Assembly: GCA_902609285.1 (NCBI GenBank)
Contig: CACLRL010000011.1
Location: 1-33,364, forward strand
Length of the DNA: 33,364 bases
DNA from: an uncultured Candidatus Actinomarina sp.
GTDB lineage: Bacteria > Actinomycetota > Acidimicrobiia > Actinomarinales > Actinomarinaceae
Reading direction: 5' to 3'
Shown here: in pieces, positions 15,730 through 28,880 of the stretch
How the letters are laid out: every line of letters begins with the position of its first letter
Numbering within the stretch: position 1 is the stretch's first letter
Notes under the pieces: generated by a model
The model's input: only the letters and a program-made list of their open reading frames with translations
The model's database searches: none
Told to the model about the DNA's origin: nothing
Translations under genes and position numbers: made by a program

Positions 15730-17049
15730 ATGAGAAAGTCTATTTTTGGACTGTCTCTTCTTACCTTAGCTTTAATTGCTGCAGCATGTGGTGGTGGAAG
15801 CTTAGAGGGAGAAGAGGTTCTTGTATTTGGTGCCCCAGCAACTGATGGACCTGACGGAAAAGCTATCCAAGAAGTCTTCGATGATTTCACCGAAGAAACT
15901 GGAATTATAGCTACTTATGTTGGTTCAGAGAACTTCGAATCAGAAGTTCAAGTTCAACTTGAATCAGGAGATGTTCCTGATATTATCTACTGGCCTCAGC
16001 CAGGTGGTGTAGTTGATGCAGCTGAAAGAGGATTACTTGTTCCTCTTGAAGATTTAGACATTGACTTGGACGAATATGAATCACGTTACTCACCATATCT
16101 TGTGAGCCTAGGTGTAGTTGATGGAGTTGCTTATGGAGGCGCTAATGCGGTTAACCTTAAGAGTATTGTTTGGTACCAACCAGCAGAATTTGACAAGAGA
16201 GGATATTCAATTCCAGCAACATGGGATGAAATGATTGCTCTTGCTGATCAAATTGTTGCAGATGGAATGAATCCATTTTGTTTTGGTATGTACTCAAACG
16301 GTGCAACAGGTTGGCTTGCAACTGACTGGATGGAAGATGTAATGCTTCGTACCGGTGGCGGAACTGCAACATATGATCAATGGGTAAATCATGAAATACC
16401 ATTTAATGATCCAGTTGTTAAAAATGCTGCTGAGTACTTAAGTCAGATTATGCACACACCTGACTACGTTGTTGGTGGAACTGATGCAATTGTTTCTACA
16501 TTCTTTGGAAACGCTCAGGACCCAATGTTTGAAAGAGATGCAGATGGCAACCCAGGTTGTTTGATGCACAGACAAGCTTCATTCATTGTTGGTTTCTGGC
16601 CTGAAGATGCTCAACCTGGAGCAGGAACAGAAACTACTGTATTTCCGTTCCCAGTAATAGATGCTAGCTTGCCAAAGGCTGCTCTTGGTGGTGGTGATAT
16701 GTTCGCCGCTACAAACGATAGAGAAGCAACTGCTGCTCTAGTTCAATATCTATTACTTGATGATGAAGCATGGACACCTGTTGCTACAAACAGAAATGGT
16801 CATGGATCAACACGTATCACTGCAAACGTAAATTTTGATACTTCATTGTATGAATTAGAAATTACGCGTGTTTTAGGTGCTACAATTAATGCTGCTTTAA
16901 GTGAGAATGCATTCAGATTTGATGCATCAGACTTAATGCCAGTTGAAATTGGTCAAGGTGCTTTCTGGTCAGAAATGACAGAATTAGCAAGTAATGGTCC
17001 TAGTTATATCGATACTGCATTAGACAATATCGAAAATGCTTGGCCGTAA
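15730..17049 (+). CDS. Sugar (CUT1, alpha-glucoside-like) ABC transporter solute-binding lipoprotein
   Basis: Signal peptide with lipobox (ALIAAAC), SBP family 1 features, followed by two permease genes. Confidence 0.92.
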   Translation: MRKSIFGLSLLTLALIAAACGGGSLEGEEVLVFGAPATDGPDGKAIQEVFDDFTEETGIIATYVGSENFESEVQVQLESGDVPDIIYWPQPGGVVDAAERGLLVPLEDLDIDLDEYESRYSPYLVSLGVVDGVAYGGANAVNLKSIVWYQPAEFDKRGYSIPATWDEMIALADQIVADGMNPFCFGMYSNGATGWLATDWMEDVMLRTGGGTATYDQWVNHEIPFNDPVVKNAAEYLSQIMHTPDYVVGGTDAIVSTFFGNAQDPMFERDADGNPGCLMHRQASFIVGFWPEDAQPGAGTETTVFPFPVIDASLPKAALGGGDMFAATNDREATAALVQYLLLDDEAWTPVATNRNGHGSTRITANVNFDTSLYELEITRVLGATINAALSENAFRFDASDLMPVEIGQGAFWSEMTELASNGPSYIDTALDNIENAWP

Positions 17050-17072
17050 ACCAAATTAAAAAAAATTAAGTT

Positions 17073-17098
17073 TATAGCCACCTTTAAAGGTGGCTATA
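17073..17098 (+). terminator. Intra-operon hairpin (attenuator/partial terminator or 3' stabilising hairpin) between SBP and permease genes
   Basis: Perfect palindrome TATAGCCACCTTTAAAGGTGGCTATA 24 nt after the SBP stop, followed by a weak T-rich stretch (ttctttg). Confidence 0.7.
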
Positions 17099-17157
17099 TT
17101 CTTTGAAGCAACAAAATATAATGTTTAAACTAAATAGAAACACTTTAAGGTATTAAT

Positions 17158-18390
17158 ATCAAAGAAAATAAATTATTCAACATTGGGATAAGGGTTATTT
17201 CTCTCGGGTTATTCCCTCTTTTTTGGTTTTTGTCCCAAGCAATATTGTTTAGAGAACTAACAAAAGTTTTACCTCGACCTGTCCTAGTAGTCCTTGCAAT
17301 AGTTGTAGGGTCAACTTTTATATTTTTACTCTATCTAGGAATGAACAAGCTAATCAACTACGCACCGGAGAGATATCACGAAGGGCTATATGGAGCAATG
17401 TTCGTCGGTCCAGCAATATTTCTTCTAGGATTGTTTCTTTTATATCCAGCAATTAGAACAATTTATCTAAGCTTTTTTGATAAAAGAGGAAATAATTTTA
17501 TAGGATTTGAAAATTATATTTGGTCTTTTTCAGATCGTCTGATGTTAATCACAATTCGTAACCAAGTAATTTGGTTAGTTGGTGTTGTAACTTTAGTGAT
17601 TTTATTTGGATTGGTTGTAGGTTACATTTCAGATAGGTTAAAAAAAGGAGAAGCTTTTTTTAAATCTATTATATTTATGCCAATGGCAATATCTGCAGTT
17701 GGTTCAAGTGCTATTTTTAAATTTATTTATGAATATAGACCACCACCTTTAACTCAAATCGGATTGATAAATGGTTTAAGAGTTGGTGTAGGTTCAGATG
17801 TAAATGGTAATGAATGTGGAAATAATGTTACTTTAGACGATGGTACTAAATTAGATTATGTTAATGAAGGTTGTCTTAAACCAATTGGTTGGCTTCAGCA
17901 AAGAGATTTAACAAACCTTCCATCTTTCGAAAATATTACAAGTACAGAATTTTTCTCAAGTATATTTGTTAATTTTCCAATCAATACTGTGCTTCTAATG
18001 CTTGTTATGGTTTGGATGTTTACTGGTTTTGCAATGGTAGTTTTTTCGGCTGCAATAAAAGCTATACCTGGTGAGATTATTGAAGCAGGTCAGATTGATG
18101 GTGCATCAGAAGGAAAAATATTTTTATCAATAGTAATACCATATTTAAAAACAACTATTTTGGTAGTTGCTACATACATGACAGTTTCAGTTTTAAAAGC
18201 TTTTGATATTATTTATGTCACAACAAGAGGTGATTTCGAAACAAATTTATTGGCTGTCAAAATGTTAGACGAATTCGCAAAATTCCTTAACCAAGGTAGA
18301 TCAGCAGCAGTAGCTGTAATAATATTTATTAGCGTTATACCAATTATTATCCTGAATATTATTAGAAATAAGAGCGAAGCAAAATCATGA
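17158..18390 (+). CDS. Sugar ABC transporter permease (AglF/MalF-type, CUT1); start codon uncertain
   Basis: EAA motif EIIEAGQIDGASEGKIFLSIVIP and a polytopic profile. ORF track starts at TTG 17230, but the frame is open to 17149 and encodes IKENKLFNIGIRVISLGLFPLFWFLSQ upstream. Confidence 0.9.
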   Translation: MKENKLFNIGIRVISLGLFPLFWFLSQAILFRELTKVLPRPVLVVLAIVVGSTFIFLLYLGMNKLINYAPERYHEGLYGAMFVGPAIFLLGLFLLYPAIRTIYLSFFDKRGNNFIGFENYIWSFSDRLMLITIRNQVIWLVGVVTLVILFGLVVGYISDRLKKGEAFFKSIIFMPMAISAVGSSAIFKFIYEYRPPPLTQIGLINGLRVGVGSDVNGNECGNNVTLDDGTKLDYVNEGCLKPIGWLQQRDLTNLPSFENITSTEFFSSIFVNFPINTVLLMLVMVWMFTGFAMVVFSAAIKAIPGEIIEAGQIDGASEGKIFLSIVIPYLKTTILVVATYMTVSVLKAFDIIYVTTRGDFETNLLAVKMLDEFAKFLNQGRSAAVAVIIFISVIPIIILNIIRNKSEAKS

Positions 18391-19286
18391 ATAACCAAGT
18401 TCAAAAATGGTATGACAAACCAATTTCAAAAATTATTCTTGTCTCTATTTCCTTGACTTGGGTTTTGCCATACTTTGGATTTGTTCTCAGTTCTTTTAGA
18501 CCTGGTGACTCTATTAAAAGAGTGTCATGGTGGAGCTCGATTGCTACAGGTGATTTTATAAGGGAATTTACATTTGATAATTATTCTGAAATACTTTTTG
18601 CAGAAAATTTAAGTAGATCTTTTTTTAATTCATTTGCAGTTACGATTCCTTCGACAATAATACCTATTACTATTGCTGCATTTGCAGCATACGCTTTTGC
18701 ATTCATAGACTTTAAAGGAAAAGATATAGCTTTTTTGTTTGTGGTTGCAATGATGATAGTACCTCTACAAATGTCTTTGATACCGTTAATTAAACTCTTC
18801 AGTAAGGGGGCCGTCTTATTTGGAGTAACAGTGATTCCAGAACTAAGTATTAATGGAACGTTCGTGGCAGTCTGGTTTGCTCATACTGGATTTGGTTTAC
18901 CGTTAGCGACATTTTTATTAAGGGATTTTATGATGGGTTTACCTAAAAGTGTCATTGAGTCTGCGAAGATTGATGGAGCTTCACACTTAACAACATTCTT
19001 CAAACTAGCATTACCGTTATCGGTTGCTGGTATTGCAGCATTTGCTACGTTTCAATTTTTATGGGTCTACAATGATTTTCTCGTTGCGAATGTATTTTTA
19101 GGAATTAGACCTCAGAATCTTGTTGTAACATCTCATGTAGCTCAGCTGACAGTTGGAAATTATGGAGAAGCTTGGCATTTAAGAACATCAGGAGCGGTGA
19201 TTTCGATGATAGTTCCCTTAATAGTATTCTTCAGTCTTCAACGATTTTTTATTAGAGGTCTTATTGGAGGAGCAGTAAAGGGTTGA
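18387..19286 (+). CDS. Sugar ABC transporter permease (AglG/MalG-type, CUT1)
   Basis: ESAKIDGASHLTTFFKLALPLSVAG EAA motif, with start overlapping the previous stop. Confidence 0.93.
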   Translation: MNNQVQKWYDKPISKIILVSISLTWVLPYFGFVLSSFRPGDSIKRVSWWSSIATGDFIREFTFDNYSEILFAENLSRSFFNSFAVTIPSTIIPITIAAFAAYAFAFIDFKGKDIAFLFVVAMMIVPLQMSLIPLIKLFSKGAVLFGVTVIPELSINGTFVAVWFAHTGFGLPLATFLLRDFMMGLPKSVIESAKIDGASHLTTFFKLALPLSVAGIAAFATFQFLWVYNDFLVANVFLGIRPQNLVVTSHVAQLTVGNYGEAWHLRTSGAVISMIVPLIVFFSLQRFFIRGLIGGAVKG

Positions 19287-19873
19287 GACCCATACAAATT
19301 TCTCTGCTCATTTTGGTTTTTTCGTTTTGTTCAGTTCTCCAAACATACAACTATGAAATAAATGTCGATGATGAAAATATAAATCATAATGGGAAATTAA
19401 TAATCGATATTATTGATAGTCAATTATTCGATGATTCATTAGAGCTGAATTTTCAATTTTATCCCAACTCGCAAACTTTACCTGAATTTTACGTCTTGAC
19501 TTTTGATATGAAATTTAGAGAAGACTATGAAAGTGATTTTGATGGTGTTTGTGTCGGCCCAACATGGGAAGAAACTAAACCTGGGGAATTAACAGTTATT
19601 TTGAATAAAGAAGATAATTTTAAATCAAAAGTAACCGCAAATTTTGATCCAAATTCATTAGAGGATAGATGTGAGAAATACATTTATTATTTGAGATATT
19701 TTCAAGCAAATATTAATTTTGAACAAAAAATATTTTTTGGAGTGGCTACTGATTATGCAGAACTCTATCCTGATGCACCAAACTATTGGTTAGTAAATAA
19801 AAATAATGAAATTGAAAAAATTGGTACTAGTAACATAAAGAAATACAGCATATATTTTGAATTGAGTAAATAA
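19283..19873 (+). CDS. Orphan secreted/membrane-anchored protein of unknown function in the sugar operon
   Basis: 196 aa ORF with N-terminal hydrophobic segment (ISLLILVFSFCSVL), starting inside the upstream permease stop and ending just before the ROK kinase gene. No family recognised. Confidence 0.65.
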   Translation: MRPIQISLLILVFSFCSVLQTYNYEINVDDENINHNGKLIIDIIDSQLFDDSLELNFQFYPNSQTLPEFYVLTFDMKFREDYESDFDGVCVGPTWEETKPGELTVILNKEDNFKSKVTANFDPNSLEDRCEKYIYYLRYFQANINFEQKIFFGVATDYAELYPDAPNYWLVNKNNEIEKIGTSNIKKYSIYFELSK

Positions 19874-19874
19874 C

Positions 19875-20768
19875 ATGAAAATTGGTATTGACTGGGGCGG
19901 TACAAAAATTGAAGCTATTGCAATTGATCCAATAAATGGTGAAGAATTAAAAAGAATACGTATAGATGCCCCAAAAAATAACTATGATGAAATAATTTCT
20001 GAAGTTGTCCGATTAATCAATGAAATTTCAGGTAGTGAAACTAATTTTACGGTTGGAATTGGTATGCCTGGATCCATAAATCCTCAAACAAATCTTGTAC
20101 AGGTATCAAATACACAAGCATTAGAAAATAAATCAGTAAAAGCAGACTTGGAAACTCAGCTTGGATATGAGATAAAAATTGCAAACGATGCCGATTGTTT
20201 AGCCCTATCAGAAGCGATTGATGGTGCTGGTGAAAAATATAGAAGTGTGTTTGCTGTCATACTCGGTACTGGTGTTGGAGCAGGCTTTTCGTTAAATAAG
20301 AAAATAGTTATTGGACCAAATAGACTGACTGGAGAGTGGGGACAAAATCCAATTCCTGGACCAATGGATGATTATGAAAAGAGTGTAAAACGACATTGTG
20401 GAAGAGTTGGTGCCATTGAGGTATTTATTTCAGGTCCAGGCTTAGAAAATCATTATCACTTTGTTACAAATTTAAAAAAAAGCTCAAGAGAAATTGTATC
20501 TTTATTTAAAGAGGAAGATTCCAATGCTGAAAAAGTAATGGATACTTACTTTGAAAGAATCGCAAGATCATTTAGTACTTTTGTAAATATATTGGATCCT
20601 GATGTCATTGTTTGTGGAGGGGGAATGTCTGAAGTAGATGATATTTATGAAGAAATACCAAAAAGAATAATTCCCTATATAGCGTCAAATTATTTTCTAA
20701 CACCAATCGTCAAAGCAAAACATGGCTCTTCAAGTGGAGTAAGAGGAGCTGCACATTTATGGAACTAA
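19875..20768 (+). CDS. ROK family sugar kinase (glucokinase/fructokinase-like)
   Basis: GIDWGGTKIEAIAID, NDADCLALSEA, GTGVGAGF, TGEWGQNPIP, CGRVGAIEVFISGPGL, VIVCGGGMS. Confidence 0.92.
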   Translation: MKIGIDWGGTKIEAIAIDPINGEELKRIRIDAPKNNYDEIISEVVRLINEISGSETNFTVGIGMPGSINPQTNLVQVSNTQALENKSVKADLETQLGYEIKIANDADCLALSEAIDGAGEKYRSVFAVILGTGVGAGFSLNKKIVIGPNRLTGEWGQNPIPGPMDDYEKSVKRHCGRVGAIEVFISGPGLENHYHFVTNLKKSSREIVSLFKEEDSNAEKVMDTYFERIARSFSTFVNILDPDVIVCGGGMSEVDDIYEEIPKRIIPYIASNYFLTPIVKAKHGSSSGVRGAAHLWN

Positions 20769-22024
20769 ATAAATATTTAATTTTTATTATTTTTATTTTG
20801 GTTACAGTAATATTTTCAATTTTTGGATACAGTCCTGAAGAAGTCGTTATTGCTGGTCCATATTTTCCACAGATTGAATATTTTGAAAATGAATTAGATT
20901 TAATTTCAGCAGATTTAAATATAAAAATAAAATATGTTCCATATTCTGACATCGAAACAGAAATAATCGAGGGTAATAACTCTGATAATTTTGATCTTGC
21001 AATTATTCCAAATCCGCAGGGTGTAGTAAATCTTGGAGAACGAGGTTATCTTTATCCAATATCAATTGCACTTGAAAAAGAAATAATAGAGAATAATTAT
21101 TCAAGACATCTACAAGAAATAACAACATCTGATGTAGATGGTGAGACGTATGGTGTCTTATTTAGGCTTATACCAAACTCGCTAATTTGGTATGATGTAG
21201 AAAAATATAATCAATTAGGATCACCAAAATTTGAAAGTTTTCATGAGATGGTCTTATTTACTGAAGCAAACGTATATGAAGATAGCCCCTTATGGTGTTT
21301 GGATATCGAAAGTGGGGCTTCCACTGGCTGGATAGCAACCAATTGGTTAGAGGACATTATCTTACATGAACAAGGTCCCACTGTATATGATGAATGGTTT
21401 CAACAAAAAATTTCTCCACAGAATGACGAGATAAAACAATCAATTTCAAATATTGGTGAATTAATTTTTATTAAAGATGCAATCTATGGAGGAAATGAAA
21501 GAATAATAAACAAAGAGTTCAGAAATAATTTTCGGAATTTGGTTGATAGCAATAATAAATGTGTTTTCAGCTGGTCAGGACATTTTGCAGGTATGTATTT
21601 CCCTGATGATAAAAACTATGGTTCTGATTATGATTTTTTTAAATTTCCATCTGCAGAAAATAAAAATGCAATGGTCGGCATCGGAGATTCATTAGTAATC
21701 CTAAGTTCAAAAAGAGATTCAATTAATGTTTTTAATTCATTAACTAGCAATTCTTTTGGGCAAGATTGGATTTCACAACAAGACGGAATGTTTATTTCTG
21801 CAAATAAAAATTCAAACATCAATAAAATTAACAGTCCAATGCTTTTAAAGGAAACGTTAATTGTAAGGGATGCATTAAATGAAGATTTATTCAGATATGA
21901 TGCATCTGAACTTATGGAAAGACGAATTGGCGCTGATTATTTGTTACTTGCTTTAAGAGAATACATTTCTTATGGAAACCTCTATATTAACTTGATTACC
22001 CAAGAACTAGATAGCCAGTATTAA
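20759..22024 (+). CDS. Second, divergent solute-binding protein paralogous to the 15730–17049 SBP, with membrane-anchor/signal N-terminus and no lipobox Cys
   Basis: Shared segments, e.g. ASTGWIATNWLEDIILHEQGPTVYDEWF vs GATGWLATDWMEDVMLRTGGGTATYDQWV, and LFRYDASELMERRIGADYL vs AFRFDASDLMPVEIGQGAF. N-terminus MELNKYLIFIIFILVTVIFSIFGYSPEE. Confidence 0.85.
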   Translation: MELNKYLIFIIFILVTVIFSIFGYSPEEVVIAGPYFPQIEYFENELDLISADLNIKIKYVPYSDIETEIIEGNNSDNFDLAIIPNPQGVVNLGERGYLYPISIALEKEIIENNYSRHLQEITTSDVDGETYGVLFRLIPNSLIWYDVEKYNQLGSPKFESFHEMVLFTEANVYEDSPLWCLDIESGASTGWIATNWLEDIILHEQGPTVYDEWFQQKISPQNDEIKQSISNIGELIFIKDAIYGGNERIINKEFRNNFRNLVDSNNKCVFSWSGHFAGMYFPDDKNYGSDYDFFKFPSAENKNAMVGIGDSLVILSSKRDSINVFNSLTSNSFGQDWISQQDGMFISANKNSNINKINSPMLLKETLIVRDALNEDLFRYDASELMERRIGADYLLLALREYISYGNLYINLITQELDSQY

Positions 22025-24874: not shown

Positions 24875-25537
24875 ATGGAAGAACTAACATATCGTCTCTT
24901 TATGGTGGCAACAGTAGGAATGCTTGCAGGAACAGTATTTTTACTTGCTTCATCAAGAGAGGTAAAACCAGAACACAGACGTGGTGTATACATTTCTGCA
25001 CTTGTCTGTGGTATTGCATGGTATCACTATCAAAAGATGGGTGCATCTTGGGAGAGTGGAGCATACGATACAGGGTTAAGATACGTTGACTGGGTCTTAA
25101 CTGTTCCTTTGATGTTTGTAGAGGTCCTAGCCGTTACAAGAAAAGGTGCCGCATATAATGAGGCAGTTCGTAACTGGGGAATTGTAGCAACAGTAATGAT
25201 TGGTGCAGGATACTACGGAGAAACATCAGCAGCAGGAAGCAACGAATATTGGACAGGATTTGTAATTGCTATGGCAGCTTACATCTGGCTAATGAGAAAT
25301 CTTCAAGCTGAAGGAGAAGGTCTTAAGGGTGATCAAGCAGTAGCTTTTGAAAACATTAAGAACTTAATCCTTGTAGGTTGGATTATTTATCCATTAGGAT
25401 ATATTGCACCTGTAGTTGGAGACTTCGATGCTATTCGTGAAGTTCTATACACAATTGCTGACATAATTAACAAAGTCGGTCTTGGTGTATTAGTACTACA
25501 AATGGCTCGAGTTCAGTCAGGAGAAAAAGTTTCGTAA
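24875..25537 (+). CDS. Type-1 microbial rhodopsin, proton-pumping (proteorhodopsin-like; marine actinobacterial clade type)
   Basis: RYVDWVLTVPLMFVE (D72, T76, E83 = DTE pump motif; M80 at the tuning position), IADIINK (D196, Schiff-base K200), GWIIYPLGY. Seven-TM size. Confidence 0.97.
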   Translation: MEELTYRLFMVATVGMLAGTVFLLASSREVKPEHRRGVYISALVCGIAWYHYQKMGASWESGAYDTGLRYVDWVLTVPLMFVEVLAVTRKGAAYNEAVRNWGIVATVMIGAGYYGETSAAGSNEYWTGFVIAMAAYIWLMRNLQAEGEGLKGDQAVAFENIKNLILVGWIIYPLGYIAPVVGDFDAIREVLYTIADIINKVGLGVLVLQMARVQSGEKVS

Positions 25538-25556
25538 CTTTTTCGAATAAAATTTT

Positions 25557-25590
25557 AATGATAGGCGACGAATGTCGCCTATCATTTTTT
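25557..25590 (+). terminator. Rho-independent terminator downstream of rhodopsin
   Basis: AATGATAGGCGAC-gaat-GTCGCCTATCATT followed by a T run: 13-bp stem, 4-nt loop. Confidence 0.93.
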
Positions 25591-25608
25591 GTAGGGTAAA
25601 ATTTTTAT

Positions 25609-26136
25609 ATGGATTTAATGAATCTAACAATTCTACTAAACACTTTTTTTGGATTTCTTACGTTTGTTGCCTGGGTATCATGTGCAGCAATAATTTATCT
25701 TTATTTTTCTAAAAAAACTTTTAAAAAAATTGTTACTGACCAGTTTCTATACTTTGCAATTTCTGTTGCTATCTTTTCTTCAATTGGAAGCATCGTTTAT
25801 TCAGAAATAGTGGGTTTTATTCCATGTAGATTTTGTTGGTATCAGAGATACTTAATGTATCCAGTTGCAATTGCACTGCTCATATCATTGGTGAAGCGAC
25901 CATTTTTTAGAGTTGGATATATAAGTATACTTGGTGTATTTGTTAGCATTTATCACATTTTTTTACAGAACGGTGGGGGAGGCGGTGGAACCTGTGCTGT
26001 TGATGTTCCCTGTGATTTAAAATATGTAGATATTTTTGGATTTATAAGTATTCCTGTAATGGCCGGAACAGGATTTTTAACGATATTTGTATCTTTGCTG
26101 TACTATGATTTTGCAAGAGAGGAATTAGTTGAGTAA
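25609..26136 (+). CDS. DsbB/BdbC-like disulfide bond formation membrane protein
   Basis: FIPCRFCWYQRYLMYPVAIAL (CxxC in a DsbB-like context), periplasmic-loop CAVDVPC, DIFGFISIPVMAGTGF. Confidence 0.88.
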   Translation: MDLMNLTILLNTFFGFLTFVAWVSCAAIIYLYFSKKTFKKIVTDQFLYFAISVAIFSSIGSIVYSEIVGFIPCRFCWYQRYLMYPVAIALLISLVKRPFFRVGYISILGVFVSIYHIFLQNGGGGGGTCAVDVPCDLKYVDIFGFISIPVMAGTGFLTIFVSLLYYDFAREELVE

Positions 26137-26731
26137 AAATTTCATTATCGCTGGAGCTGTTGTACTTGTACTGGGTCTAGCTATTGCAATTGGTGTGACT
26201 TTAAGTTCTGAACCAGTAGCTGCTGGACTCCCTGAGGGTGAGATCAACGTTGATGGAGAATTTCTTCCTCAATATGCTGGAGAAAATGATGACAACATTG
26301 CACTTGGGCTTTCGGCACCAACATTTTCAGCACCAGATCAAAATTCAGAAATTTTTAACTTAGAAAAAAATGGAAATTCTAAAGCATTATTGTTTTTAGC
26401 TCACTGGTGTCCTCATTGTCAACGAGAAGTTCCTGTAGTTCAAAGCTTTATTGATTCAAATGGCGTTCCACCAGGAATCGATGTCATAGCAGTTGCTACA
26501 TCTATTGACAGAGGAAGAGATAATTATCCTCCTCAAGAATGGTTAGAACGTGAGGGTTGGAGTGAAACCCAAATTTATGATTTAGATCGTGAAATTGGGG
26601 AAGCTTACGGACTTAATGCATTTCCTTATTGGGTATTTCTAGATAAAGACCTCAATGTTATTGCTAGAAGAACAGGAAACCTGCCGGAGGATATGGTTGG
26701 AGCCCTTCTTGTTCAACTTGCTAATCAATAA
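26129..26731 (+). CDS. Membrane-anchored thioredoxin-fold oxidoreductase (TlpA/DsbA-like) with CPHC active site
   Basis: N-terminal TM anchor, FLAHWCPHCQREVPVVQSF active site, NAFPYWVFLDKD cis-Pro loop. TTG start overlaps the dsbB-like stop. Confidence 0.9.
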   Translation: MSKNFIIAGAVVLVLGLAIAIGVTLSSEPVAAGLPEGEINVDGEFLPQYAGENDDNIALGLSAPTFSAPDQNSEIFNLEKNGNSKALLFLAHWCPHCQREVPVVQSFIDSNGVPPGIDVIAVATSIDRGRDNYPPQEWLEREGWSETQIYDLDREIGEAYGLNAFPYWVFLDKDLNVIARRTGNLPEDMVGALLVQLANQ

Positions 26732-26732
26732 T

Positions 26733-27362
26733 TTAATTGTTATTTTCAAAAACTCCCAAATAAACAAACCCAAAAAGGCCAGTTCTTTTTAACATCTTTT
26801 TTTCTAAATTTATATCAGTTAACAAATCTTCAGGTGGTGGAAGCTTATCTAAGGAAAAGTGTAAAAATCTATATTCTCTCAGATTAAATGTAATCAATCC
26901 AATCAAATGCAAAACGATGTAAGTTCCAATTTTATGAAATCGTTTAAGGATACTATTACGAGGTCTTGACATATCTAGTATTATAAATTTTCCATCTTTT
27001 TTTAAAACTCTTGAAACTTCACTAAAAGTTTTATCAATATTGTCAACATTTCTTAATACGAAACAACAAAATATATTGTCAAAGTAATTATTATCAAAAG
27101 GTAAATTTTCACTTATGCCGATCACTTTATTTTGAAATTTATTTAACGACAACATATTTTCATCAGGATCTAGAGCTACGACATCAAACCCTTTGAGATC
27201 CTCATATGATGCCCCTGTACCACTACCGAGATCAAGGACATTTCCAGGTTTAAGATTTGTAGCAGCTTGACGACGCCATGATTTATCAAATCCAAATGTT
27301 ATCAATGAATTGATGAAGTCGTAAAATTTATGAATGTTTGAAAAGTTAGCAGATTTGTTCAA
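26733..27362 (-). CDS. Demethylmenaquinone methyltransferase (UbiE/MenG family)
   Basis: VLDLGSGTGASYEDL SAM motif, LPFDNNYFDNIFCCFVLRNV, REYRFLHFSLDKLPPPEDLL. TTG start abuts the upstream menA-fusion stop. Confidence 0.88.
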   Translation of the reverse strand: MNKSANFSNIHKFYDFINSLITFGFDKSWRRQAATNLKPGNVLDLGSGTGASYEDLKGFDVVALDPDENMLSLNKFQNKVIGISENLPFDNNYFDNIFCCFVLRNVDNIDKTFSEVSRVLKKDGKFIILDMSRPRNSILKRFHKIGTYIVLHLIGLITFNLREYRFLHFSLDKLPPPEDLLTDINLEKKMLKRTGLFGFVYLGVFENNN

Positions 27363-28880
27363 TTAAATTAGATATGCAACAGCAAGTAATAATCCTGTTA
27401 CAAAGTGTATGCCAATAGTTGAAACGTTTACAAGCAATAATTCATAAGGTACCTTTTGCCTATCAGCATTAGGATTATTCCATTTAATCATCCACTCATC
27501 AGCCATTTTGAATGCTTTCCAAACTAATGCCACAGGTAGCAAAGCAATGAAAGCATAAACAGTTCCAAACTCCGTGAAAAAGCTTAGGATACTAATTAAT
27601 CCAACGGAGAGAAAGGCTTCGATCATAAACTGTTTGTATAAAGATAATGGTTTTTCAAGTCTCATCCAACCATCATTTACGGCTGTTCTAACTACCCAGG
27701 TATTTTTACCAACTGCAGCGTCTGAGGGTGCGTCTTGAAACTGATTTATCCAAACTATGAGCATTACCAATAGTGCAATAGGTATTGAAGCAAGTAATGC
27801 TTCAGCCCAATTCCAAAGTGATAAATCATTATTATGCATAGGAAATGTTAGAACATAGTGTGCTCCCATTACCATCACAGGACCAAATCCGAGTGCTATT
27901 GCAATTTCTCCAAAACCTTTATATCCAAGCCTCACAGGATCTCCTGTATATCCTAATGCAAGAAAAGTTCCAAGAACTCCAGTCCATAATATAGGTGTAT
28001 TTCCAAATATATAACCACTTATTTGTTGATTAATATAGAGTCCTATACCGATCGTTCCAAGAATACTTACTAAGGCCGTAATTAAAACTTGTCCAGGAGT
28101 CATTAAACCAACTTGAATTACCCTACTACCTCCGTTGAATGGACTAGCAACCTTATTTATTTCATCAGCACTAGATGTATGGTCAAAATAATCGTTAGAA
28201 GCGTTTGTTGCTATCTGTGCTAAACATGCACCACCAAGAACAAGCCAAAACATATTCCATGACCACGTACTATTTAAATTTTCTGATTTCAGATCATTCC
28301 AAGCAACGGATGCGCCAATTAATATAGGTGCAATAGTTGCAGTGAGAAAGGGGGCTCTTACAGTACGTAGCCACAGACCAATTCTTTTCAACGCTAGTTT
28401 AAATGTGAATTTTACAGCTGAGGTTTTATTACTTGGGTATGTTCTCCACTCAAATTGTTCTTCTTGATAAAAATCTACATATTTTATTGTTATTGGTTTT
28501 ATGCGGTAATAACCAACAACGTCATTTTCTTTTAAAAAGTCATCTTCCATATATTCTTTGAATGCCTCAGTTGTAGATAAAACCATTTCATACGCTTTTT
28601 CTTTTTCTTGTTCATCTTTTATTTTGTAACATTCACCATCAATCTGAAGGCCTTTAATTCCTTCTTGTCCTTTTGGCCATATCACTACGTGCACTCTTGG
28701 ATTCAAACGAATTTGCTCTGCTTTTCTTGTCGGGTTAAAGGTAAAAAATACAAGATCCTCACCATCGCGAGCATAGAAAACTGATGCACCTGAGGAATTT
28801 CCACCAACACTTGTTGCTATGAACATTCTGTCAGCAGAATCTAAAACATCTTCAATTTTTTTATCAAGAACATCATTCAT
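27363..28880 (-). CDS. Fusion protein: N-terminal PNPOx-like split beta-barrel (flavin-binding family) domain plus C-terminal MenA/UbiA-type prenyltransferase
   Basis: N-terminus: MFIATSVGGNSSGASVFYARDGEDLVFFTFNPTRKAEQIRLNPRVHVVIWP. C-terminus: NASNDYFDHTSSAD, YTGDPVRLGYKGFGEIAIALGFGPVMVMG, QFQDAPSDAAVGKNT. One uninterrupted 505-aa ORF. Confidence 0.87.
   Translation of the reverse strand: MNDVLDKKIEDVLDSADRMFIATSVGGNSSGASVFYARDGEDLVFFTFNPTRKAEQIRLNPRVHVVIWPKGQEGIKGLQIDGECYKIKDEQEKEKAYEMVLSTTEAFKEYMEDDFLKENDVVGYYRIKPITIKYVDFYQEEQFEWRTYPSNKTSAVKFTFKLALKRIGLWLRTVRAPFLTATIAPILIGASVAWNDLKSENLNSTWSWNMFWLVLGGACLAQIATNASNDYFDHTSSADEINKVASPFNGGSRVIQVGLMTPGQVLITALVSILGTIGIGLYINQQISGYIFGNTPILWTGVLGTFLALGYTGDPVRLGYKGFGEIAIALGFGPVMVMGAHYVLTFPMHNNDLSLWNWAEALLASIPIALLVMLIVWINQFQDAPSDAAVGKNTWVVRTAVNDGWMRLEKPLSLYKQFMIEAFLSVGLISILSFFTEFGTVYAFIALLPVALVWKAFKMADEWMIKWNNPNADRQKVPYELLLVNVSTIGIHFVTGLLLAVAYLI

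What the first reader, a model, noticed from the sequence alone, without database searches (positions are those of the whole stretch)
27363..28880. PNPOx-like flavin/deazaflavin-type domain fused to a MenA prenyltransferase
Seen: one 505-aa ORF joins a complete N-terminal pyridoxamine-phosphate-oxidase-like split barrel (about aa 1–145) to a UbiA-family domain with both Asp-rich motifs (NDYFDHTSSAD; DAPSDAAVGKNT) and the MenA-like YTGDPVRLGYKGFGE segment. The next gene, menG/ubiE, starts immediately after its stop. Established: MenA attaches the isoprenoid tail to DHNA and MenG methylates the product. Canonical MenA has no redox domain. Inference: the barrel may act on the quinol/quinone intermediate, keep DHNA reduced, or protect against photo-oxidation in a rhodopsin-bearing cell. 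It could also bind F420, heme or FMN for another purpose. I am not aware of this architecture as a described enzyme.
Basis: partly seen in the sequence, partly recalled or inferred. Interest (0 to 1): 0.72.

Follow-up and report, generated by a model that had tools for sequence, protein, structure and literature searches.

The report
Flavin-barrel domain fused to quinone prenyltransferase
Abundant tiny ocean bacteria carry a MenA-like enzyme (which puts the greasy tail on respiratory quinones) permanently joined to a flavin-type domain, and they keep it although no known quinone-ring pathway was found in them, which suggests they either take up the ring from neighbours or make it by an unknown route.

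Summary
A 505-aa protein joins a complete PNPOx-type split barrel (aa 1–148) to a nine-helix UbiA domain of the MenA branch, and a MenG-like gene starts at the next base. It is not an artefact: the architecture occurs in 35 of 42 Actinomarina genomes, about 30 of 199 Fidelibacterota (SAR406) genomes, and in Calditrichota, Gammaproteobacteria, Chloroflexota and others (47–97% identity). The FMN-phosphate signature (T/S)RK and the Asp-rich motifs are nearly invariant. Most other carriers lack F420 synthesis, so FMN is the likelier cofactor. The fusion is their only quinone-type prenyltransferase, retained with MenG. That gene set resembles known DHNA scavengers (Porphyromonas pasteri). Best reading: an FMN-assisted naphthoquinol prenyltransferase fed by scavenged or non-canonically made precursor, the barrel keeping the ring reduced. 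The prenyltransferase role is well supported; cofactor, barrel chemistry and ring source are inferred. No paper describing the architecture was found in the library searched.

The parts
27363..28880 (-). 505-aa fusion protein, FMN-type split barrel + MenA-like UbiA prenyltransferase
   Evidence: relatives
28437..28880 (-). N-terminal split-barrel domain (aa 1-148); FMN-phosphate signature T51-R52-K53, with T47
   Evidence: PF01243; AF2 pLDDT 93.3; Foldseek to FMN split barrels 2i02, 3db0, 3ec6; R52 25/25, K53 24/25, T51 as T/S 24/25, T47 24/25 among 25 representatives under 80% identical
28377..28436 (-). linker (about aa 149-168), the least conserved stretch
   Evidence: mean majority-residue frequency 0.42 versus 0.68 (barrel) and 0.64 (UbiA)
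27363..28376 (-). UbiA domain (aa 169-505), MenA branch
   Evidence: PF01040, NCBIfam MenA models below cut-off, tree, UBIAD1 8djk
28164..28196 (-). first Asp-rich motif NDYFDHTSSAD (aa 229-239)
   Evidence: N229, D230, D233, H234, D239 invariant in 25/25 representatives
27720..27746 (-). second Asp-rich motif NQFQDAPSD (aa 379-387)
   Evidence: N379, Q382, D383, D387 invariant in 25/25 representatives
26733..27362 (-). MenG/UbiE-like methyltransferase, 209 aa, TTG start at the base after the fusion's stop
   Evidence: PF01209 83.3 bits; TIGR01934 117 bits, below its 158 cut-off; also next to the fusion in Fidelibacterota

Best explanation
The protein is a quinone prenyltransferase of the MenA branch with a built-in FMN domain. 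The UbiA half attaches a polyprenyl tail to a naphthoquinol-type ring, and the MenG-like product of the next gene methylates the result, giving the cell's membrane quinone. Because no pathway that makes DHNA or the futalosine-route precursor was found in Actinomarina or in a streamlined SAR406 genome, the ring is probably taken up (DHNA or a related naphthoquinone released by other plankton) or made by an unrecognised route. Such a precursor oxidises easily in oxygenated sea water, and prenylation needs the reduced quinol; the barrel, likely a dimer with FMN at its interface as in related split barrels, would reduce the precursor or hold it reduced and pass it to the membrane domain. Shown here: the fusion, its spread, conservation of both active-site signatures, the MenG linkage, and the failure to find MenB/MenD/MqnA. 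Inferred: FMN as cofactor, the reductase role, and the scavenged ring.
For: Domains and folds. The only solved relative found by the full profile is UBIAD1, which from general knowledge makes MK-4 from menadione and needs the reduced form. MenA branch, apart from CtaB/UbiA/MqnP at 100/100 support. FMN-phosphate residues equivalent to E. coli PdxH T83, R88 and K89 (alignment; conservation). The barrel is at least as conserved as the UbiA half, and the two domain trees agree on the main groups, as expected for one old fusion. MenG homologue next to or near the fusion in Actinomarina (gap 0) and in 7 larger-genome Fidelibacterota, one of them upstream. Need for a quinone: complex I, Rieske-type protein and aa3 oxidase in G058. 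Only two UbiA proteins in G058 and in SAR406 G330, heme O synthase and the fusion; G330 keeps a MenG above cut-off. No MenD over cut-off in 23 Actinomarina versus 12 of 16 sister Acidimicrobiia; no MqnA/D; no HPPD; no MenB over cut-off. P. pasteri, with the two last genes but without five upstream genes, grows on DHNA (PMC9704088).
Against: Some carriers have a known route of their own: one Calditrichia genome has MenB, MenD and a separate MenA-like gene (G013), three others have two MqnA/D-family genes, and gammaproteobacterial carriers have UbiA-type prenyltransferases, so the protein is not always the only quinone prenyltransferase and may have another substrate there. MenA equivalog cut-offs are not reached. 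The Actinomarina MenG is short and below its family cut-off. No uptake system for DHNA was sought. Absence rests on draft genomes, although 23 of one genus agree. No cofactor or activity data exist.
Confidence: 0.45

Rival explanations
1. An undiscovered ring-forming pathway feeds this enzyme: these lineages make a quinone head group by enzymes unlike the Men, Mqn, Ubi or HPPD routes, and the fusion is its prenyltransferase.
For: No Men or Mqn marker was found in Actinomarina, HPPD is absent, and relying on a scarce dissolved precursor would be risky for a free-living cell (inference). MenG is retained. Unusual quinones are still being described (PMC12324825, listed, not read).
Against: No candidate ring enzyme sits beside the fusion in any lineage; neighbours other than MenG are unrelated between phyla. 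The reciprocal-best-hit list of G058 versus G330 was only inspected at its top and showed mainly housekeeping proteins.
Confidence: 0.25
2. The barrel is a flavin- or ligand-binding sensor or structural module (dimerisation, regulation by redox state) with no catalytic turnover, and the UbiA half is an ordinary MenA-like enzyme.
For: Many small split-barrel proteins have no known turnover; the barrel matches PdxH only over its FMN-binding part and far below the PdxH cut-off.
Against: Very high conservation of the barrel across phyla, including R52, K53, D39, D113, G82 and G123, shows selection but cannot separate sensing from catalysis.
Confidence: 0.2
3. The protein prenylates a different aromatic compound (a redox-active or antioxidant lipid), not the respiratory quinone.
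For: Carriers with a separate quinone route exist, and the NQFQDxxxD motif and SPFNGGSR loop differ from textbook MenA (sequence; the comparison with textbook MenA is from memory).
Against: In Actinomarina G058 and SAR406 G330 no other quinone-type prenyltransferase was found although they have an aa3 oxidase, and MenG is adjacent in two unrelated phyla.
Confidence: 0.1
4. Assembly or annotation artefact, or a chance read-through of two neighbouring genes.
For: None found.
Against: More than 60 contigs from single-cell genomes and MAGs of many projects, one open frame.
Confidence: 0.01

Closest known systems
MenA, 1,4-dihydroxy-2-naphthoate polyprenyltransferase (NCBIfam PRK06080 / TIGR00751)
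   Same: Best-matching family for aa 165-455; both Asp-rich motifs; followed by MenG.
   Different: All equivalog cut-offs missed (105.9 of 264; 71 of 102); N-terminal flavin-type barrel; no DHNA-producing genes found in Actinomarina; the fusions fall outside the canonical MenA clade.
UBIAD1 (human vitamin K2 synthase; PDB 8djk, 8djm)
   Same: Only solved structure found by the full-length profile. From general knowledge, it too makes a menaquinone from a pre-formed naphthoquinone.
   Different: No flavin domain; eukaryotic; low sequence identity.
FMN split-barrel proteins: general stress protein 26 type (3ec6), NPUN_R6570 (2i02), Lin2891 (3db0), PdxH (1dnl)
   Same: Same fold (TM by query length 0.70-0.73 for 2i02, 3db0 and 3ec6; 0.60 for 1dnl) and the same T..(S/T)RK FMN-phosphate motif.
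   Different: Stand-alone soluble proteins; no membrane domain.
DHNA-scavenging bacteria (Porphyromonas pasteri; Lactiplantibacillus plantarum)
   Same: Final step(s) of menaquinone synthesis kept, ring pathway missing; exogenous DHNA used (PMC9704088, PMC10746273).
   Different: Host- or food-associated; no flavin-fused MenA mentioned in the passages read.

Membership tests
UbiA prenyltransferase superfamily | UbiA Pfam match over cut-off | tested here: met
   77.8 bits versus 34.2
UbiA prenyltransferase superfamily | two conserved Asp-rich motifs on a helical membrane bundle | tested here: met
   Invariant in 25 representatives; helices; UbiA structures matched
MenA (DHNA polyprenyltransferase) | NCBIfam equivalog cut-off | tested here: not met
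   Best 105.9 of 264, and TIGR00751 71 of 102.15
MenA (DHNA polyprenyltransferase) | groups with MenA rather than CtaB, UbiA, MqnP | tested here: met
   100/100 split; the tree warns of long branches among the outgroups
MenA (DHNA polyprenyltransferase) | DHNA-producing genes in the same genome | tested here: not met
   No MenD over cut-off in 23 Actinomarina and no MenB over cut-off in those searched
MenA (DHNA polyprenyltransferase) | converts DHNA to demethylmenaquinone | not testable with these tools
   Needs enzyme assay or complementation
FMN-binding split barrel (PNPOx-like) | PF01243 over cut-off and split-barrel fold | tested here: met
   41.4 versus 28.1 bits; Foldseek
FMN-binding split barrel (PNPOx-like) | FMN-phosphate residues equivalent to PdxH T83, R88, K89 | tested here: met
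   Alignment; T47 24/25, R52 25/25, K53 24/25
FMN-binding split barrel (PNPOx-like) | binds FMN | not testable with these tools
   Needs purified protein
Pyridoxamine 5'-phosphate oxidase PdxH | NCBIfam TIGR00558 cut-off | tested here: not met
   20.0 of 180 bits
F420-dependent PPOX-class oxidoreductase | subfamily cut-off TIGR03618 | tested here: not met
   22.4 of 79.05 bits
F420-dependent PPOX-class oxidoreductase | carrier genomes make F420 (cofD) | tested here: not met
   Present in Actinomarina and in G016; no match in the other 16 carrier genomes searched

The most novel reading that the evidence does not exclude
Two of the ocean's abundant streamlined lineages, Actinomarina and small-genome SAR406, are quinone-ring auxotrophs (or use an unknown ring pathway), and complete their respiratory quinone with a single flavoenzyme that reduces a scavenged naphthoquinone and prenylates it in one polypeptide.
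Probability: 0.3. Interest if true: 0.85.

Novelty: new variant of a known kind. Interest (0 to 1): 0.64.

Why it matters
If right, it gives a concrete reason why some of the most numerous uncultured marine bacteria resist culture (they may need a dissolved quinone precursor) and a direct test: add DHNA or menadione to dilution cultures. It would also describe a new way to couple quinone reduction to prenylation, in one gene that could be expressed in E. coli and tested, and a possible cross-feeding currency in the surface ocean. If the ring is instead made by an unknown route, these small genomes (about 0.9 to 1.1 Mb) are the easiest place to look for it.

Tried and rejected
Artefact: rejected. 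F420 cofactor: not favoured, because cofD was not found in 16 carrier genomes, although Actinomarina itself has cofD and an F420-type LLM oxidoreductase. Homogentisate/plastoquinone-like route: no HPPD over cut-off in any genome searched and no match at all in Actinomarina. A second quinone prenyltransferase in Actinomarina G058 or SAR406 G330: none; the other UbiA is heme O synthase. Heme-binding HugZ-type barrel: fold similarity only, to longer proteins, so not favoured. Gene-neighbour clues in Calditrichota, Chlorobiota and gammaproteobacteria led nowhere apart from a cytochrome c gene near the fusion in two contigs. The PDB search with one barrel sequence was uninformative. A light-protection role was considered and not pursued for lack of any test.

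Full report
What is there. The finding's coordinates are right but the gene lies on the minus strand: window 28880 to 27363 encodes 505 aa. Pfam finds PNPOx_N at aa 5–96 and UbiA at aa 202–454, both over their curated cut-offs. AlphaFold with an 18-sequence alignment gives a confident two-domain model (pLDDT 88.7, pTM 0.82); the barrel alone reaches pLDDT 93.3. Foldseek places the barrel among FMN split barrels such as 2i02, 3db0 and 3ec6 and the helical part among UbiA enzymes including DGGGP synthase and UBIAD1. The MenG/UbiE-like gene (27362–26733, minus) starts at the very next base.

It is not an artefact. One scan of species-representative genomes returned more than 45 full-length fusions besides the window's own, and more came from genome searches. 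In Actinomarina 35 of 42 genomes have it, and the seven without are at most 77% complete; no other Acidimicrobiia among the 198 genomes searched has it, only small stand-alone barrels at 36–44 bits. In the phylum of L034 (Fidelibacterota, SAR406), 31 of 199 genomes have a match, 30 of them strong, many in genomes of only 0.7–1.0 Mb. Other carriers are Calditrichota, Gammaproteobacteria (including the Olavius algarvensis Gamma 3 symbiont), a Chloroflexota MAG, and MAGs labelled Chlorobiota, Bacteroidetes and Caldisericaceae. Identity to the window protein is 47–97%.

Conservation. Among 25 representatives under 80% identical, the barrel's T..(T/S)-R-K motif is nearly invariant (T47 24/25, R52 25/25, K53 24/25), as are D39, D113, G82, A54, Q56 and N60; N229, D230, D233, D239, D383 and D387 of the UbiA half are invariant. 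The alignment to E. coli PdxH puts T47, T51, R52 and K53 at T83, S87, R88 and K89, which from general knowledge of PdxH lie at the FMN phosphate. The barrel is at least as conserved as the UbiA half (0.68 versus 0.64 mean majority frequency), while the linker drops to 0.42. Trees of the two halves recover the same main groups (Actinomarina with L031; the gammaproteobacterial groups; Chlorobiota with RSWS12), though the barrel tree is weakly resolved. This fits one old fusion spread by horizontal transfer; Actinomarina very likely acquired it, since its class otherwise lacks it (inference).

Cofactor. F420 is the main alternative for such barrels in actinobacteria. Actinomarina does have cofD, but of the 17 carrier genomes outside the genus searched only G016 had it. 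FMN is therefore the likelier cofactor of the family; heme is not favoured; neither is shown.

Which prenyltransferase. All best NCBIfam matches are MenA models but below cut-off. The UbiA domain falls with MenA-like proteins and away from CtaB, UbiA and MqnP (100/100). The only solved structure found by the full profile is UBIAD1.

The surprise: no ring pathway. No MenD over cut-off occurs in 23 Actinomarina genomes (best 54 bits; the one scanned is acetolactate synthase), versus 12 of 16 sister Acidimicrobiia. No MqnA/MqnD was found in any of the 39. MenB matches are ordinary crotonases and HPPD is absent. A 93% complete genome, G058, has complex I subunits, a Rieske-type protein, aa3 oxidase and a polyprenyl diphosphate synthase but only two UbiA proteins: heme O synthase and the fusion. 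A SAR406 genome read in full (G330, 0.92 Mb in five contigs) shows the same: aa3 oxidase, a MenG over cut-off (231 versus 158 bits), heme O synthase and the fusion, and no MenB, MenD or Mqn. In Fidelibacterota, MenB over cut-off occurred in 1 of 30 fusion carriers and 6 of 20 non-carriers sampled; relatedness was not corrected for. In three other carriers lacking Men and Mqn markers (G003, G009, G016) the remaining UbiA proteins checked resembled CtaB, GGGP-type enzymes or decaprenyl-phosphate phosphoribosyltransferase, and one had no family match.

Context. The fusion and MenG are adjacent in Actinomarina and next to or near each other in seven Fidelibacterota, which ties the protein to quinone synthesis in two unrelated phyla. 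In twelve small SAR406 genomes the fusion instead sits in one fixed neighbourhood of housekeeping-type genes. Elsewhere no shared neighbour emerges.

Mechanism. Bacteria that keep only the last steps and live on exogenous DHNA are known: Porphyromonas pasteri lacks five menaquinone genes, has the two that convert DHNA, and grows on DHNA (PMC9704088); L. plantarum uses exogenous DHNA (PMC10746273). Actinomarina and SAR406 G330 have a similar gene set with a flavin-type domain added. In oxygenated water a dissolved naphthoate would be oxidised; an FMN barrel that reduces it next to the prenyltransferase would make sense (inference). The order of confidence is: quinone-type prenyltransferase (high), FMN binding (fairly high), barrel reducing the aromatic substrate (moderate), scavenged ring (moderate; an unknown pathway is the main rival).

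Limits. Carriers with Men or Mqn genes, or with a ubiquinone-type UbiA, show the protein is not always the sole quinone prenyltransferase. Genomes are drafts. No paper on the architecture was found in the open library, which does not cover all literature; it may be listed as an uncharacterised architecture in InterPro, which could not be checked.

Noticed in passing
window 24875-26731: Bacteriorhodopsin-family gene followed by a DsbB-like and a ResA/redoxin-like gene on the same strand; conserved in order in other Actinomarina contigs.
   Followed up: no
window 15730-22024: Sugar-type ABC transporter region with two related solute-binding proteins (15730-17049 and 20759-22024) around two permeases and a ROK-like kinase (from sequence appearance).
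   Followed up: no
L031:5001-6515: A contig binned as Draconibacterium carries a fusion 70% identical to the Actinomarina one with different neighbours: either a mis-binned related lineage or a transfer.
   Followed up: partly
L047 and L043: In gammaproteobacteria the fusion follows a cytochrome c gene (L043, L047), and in the Olavius Gamma 3 symbiont it precedes a nos_propeller/cupredoxin protein (NosZ-like).
   Followed up: no
L254, L255, L258-L267: Twelve streamlined SAR406 genomes keep the fusion in one fixed neighbourhood, from sequence appearance ftsH - folP - dacA-like - fusion - prfB - lysS.
   Followed up: partly
L230, L231: Two MAGs that carry the fusion also have a UbiA-matching ORF of about 550 aa, possibly another UbiA fusion; not identified.
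   Followed up: no
L189:11387-12202 (G058) and G000:C13:17650-18528: Actinomarina has an F420-dependent LLM oxidoreductase and cofD, so this roughly 1 Mb genome keeps F420 metabolism.
   Followed up: partly
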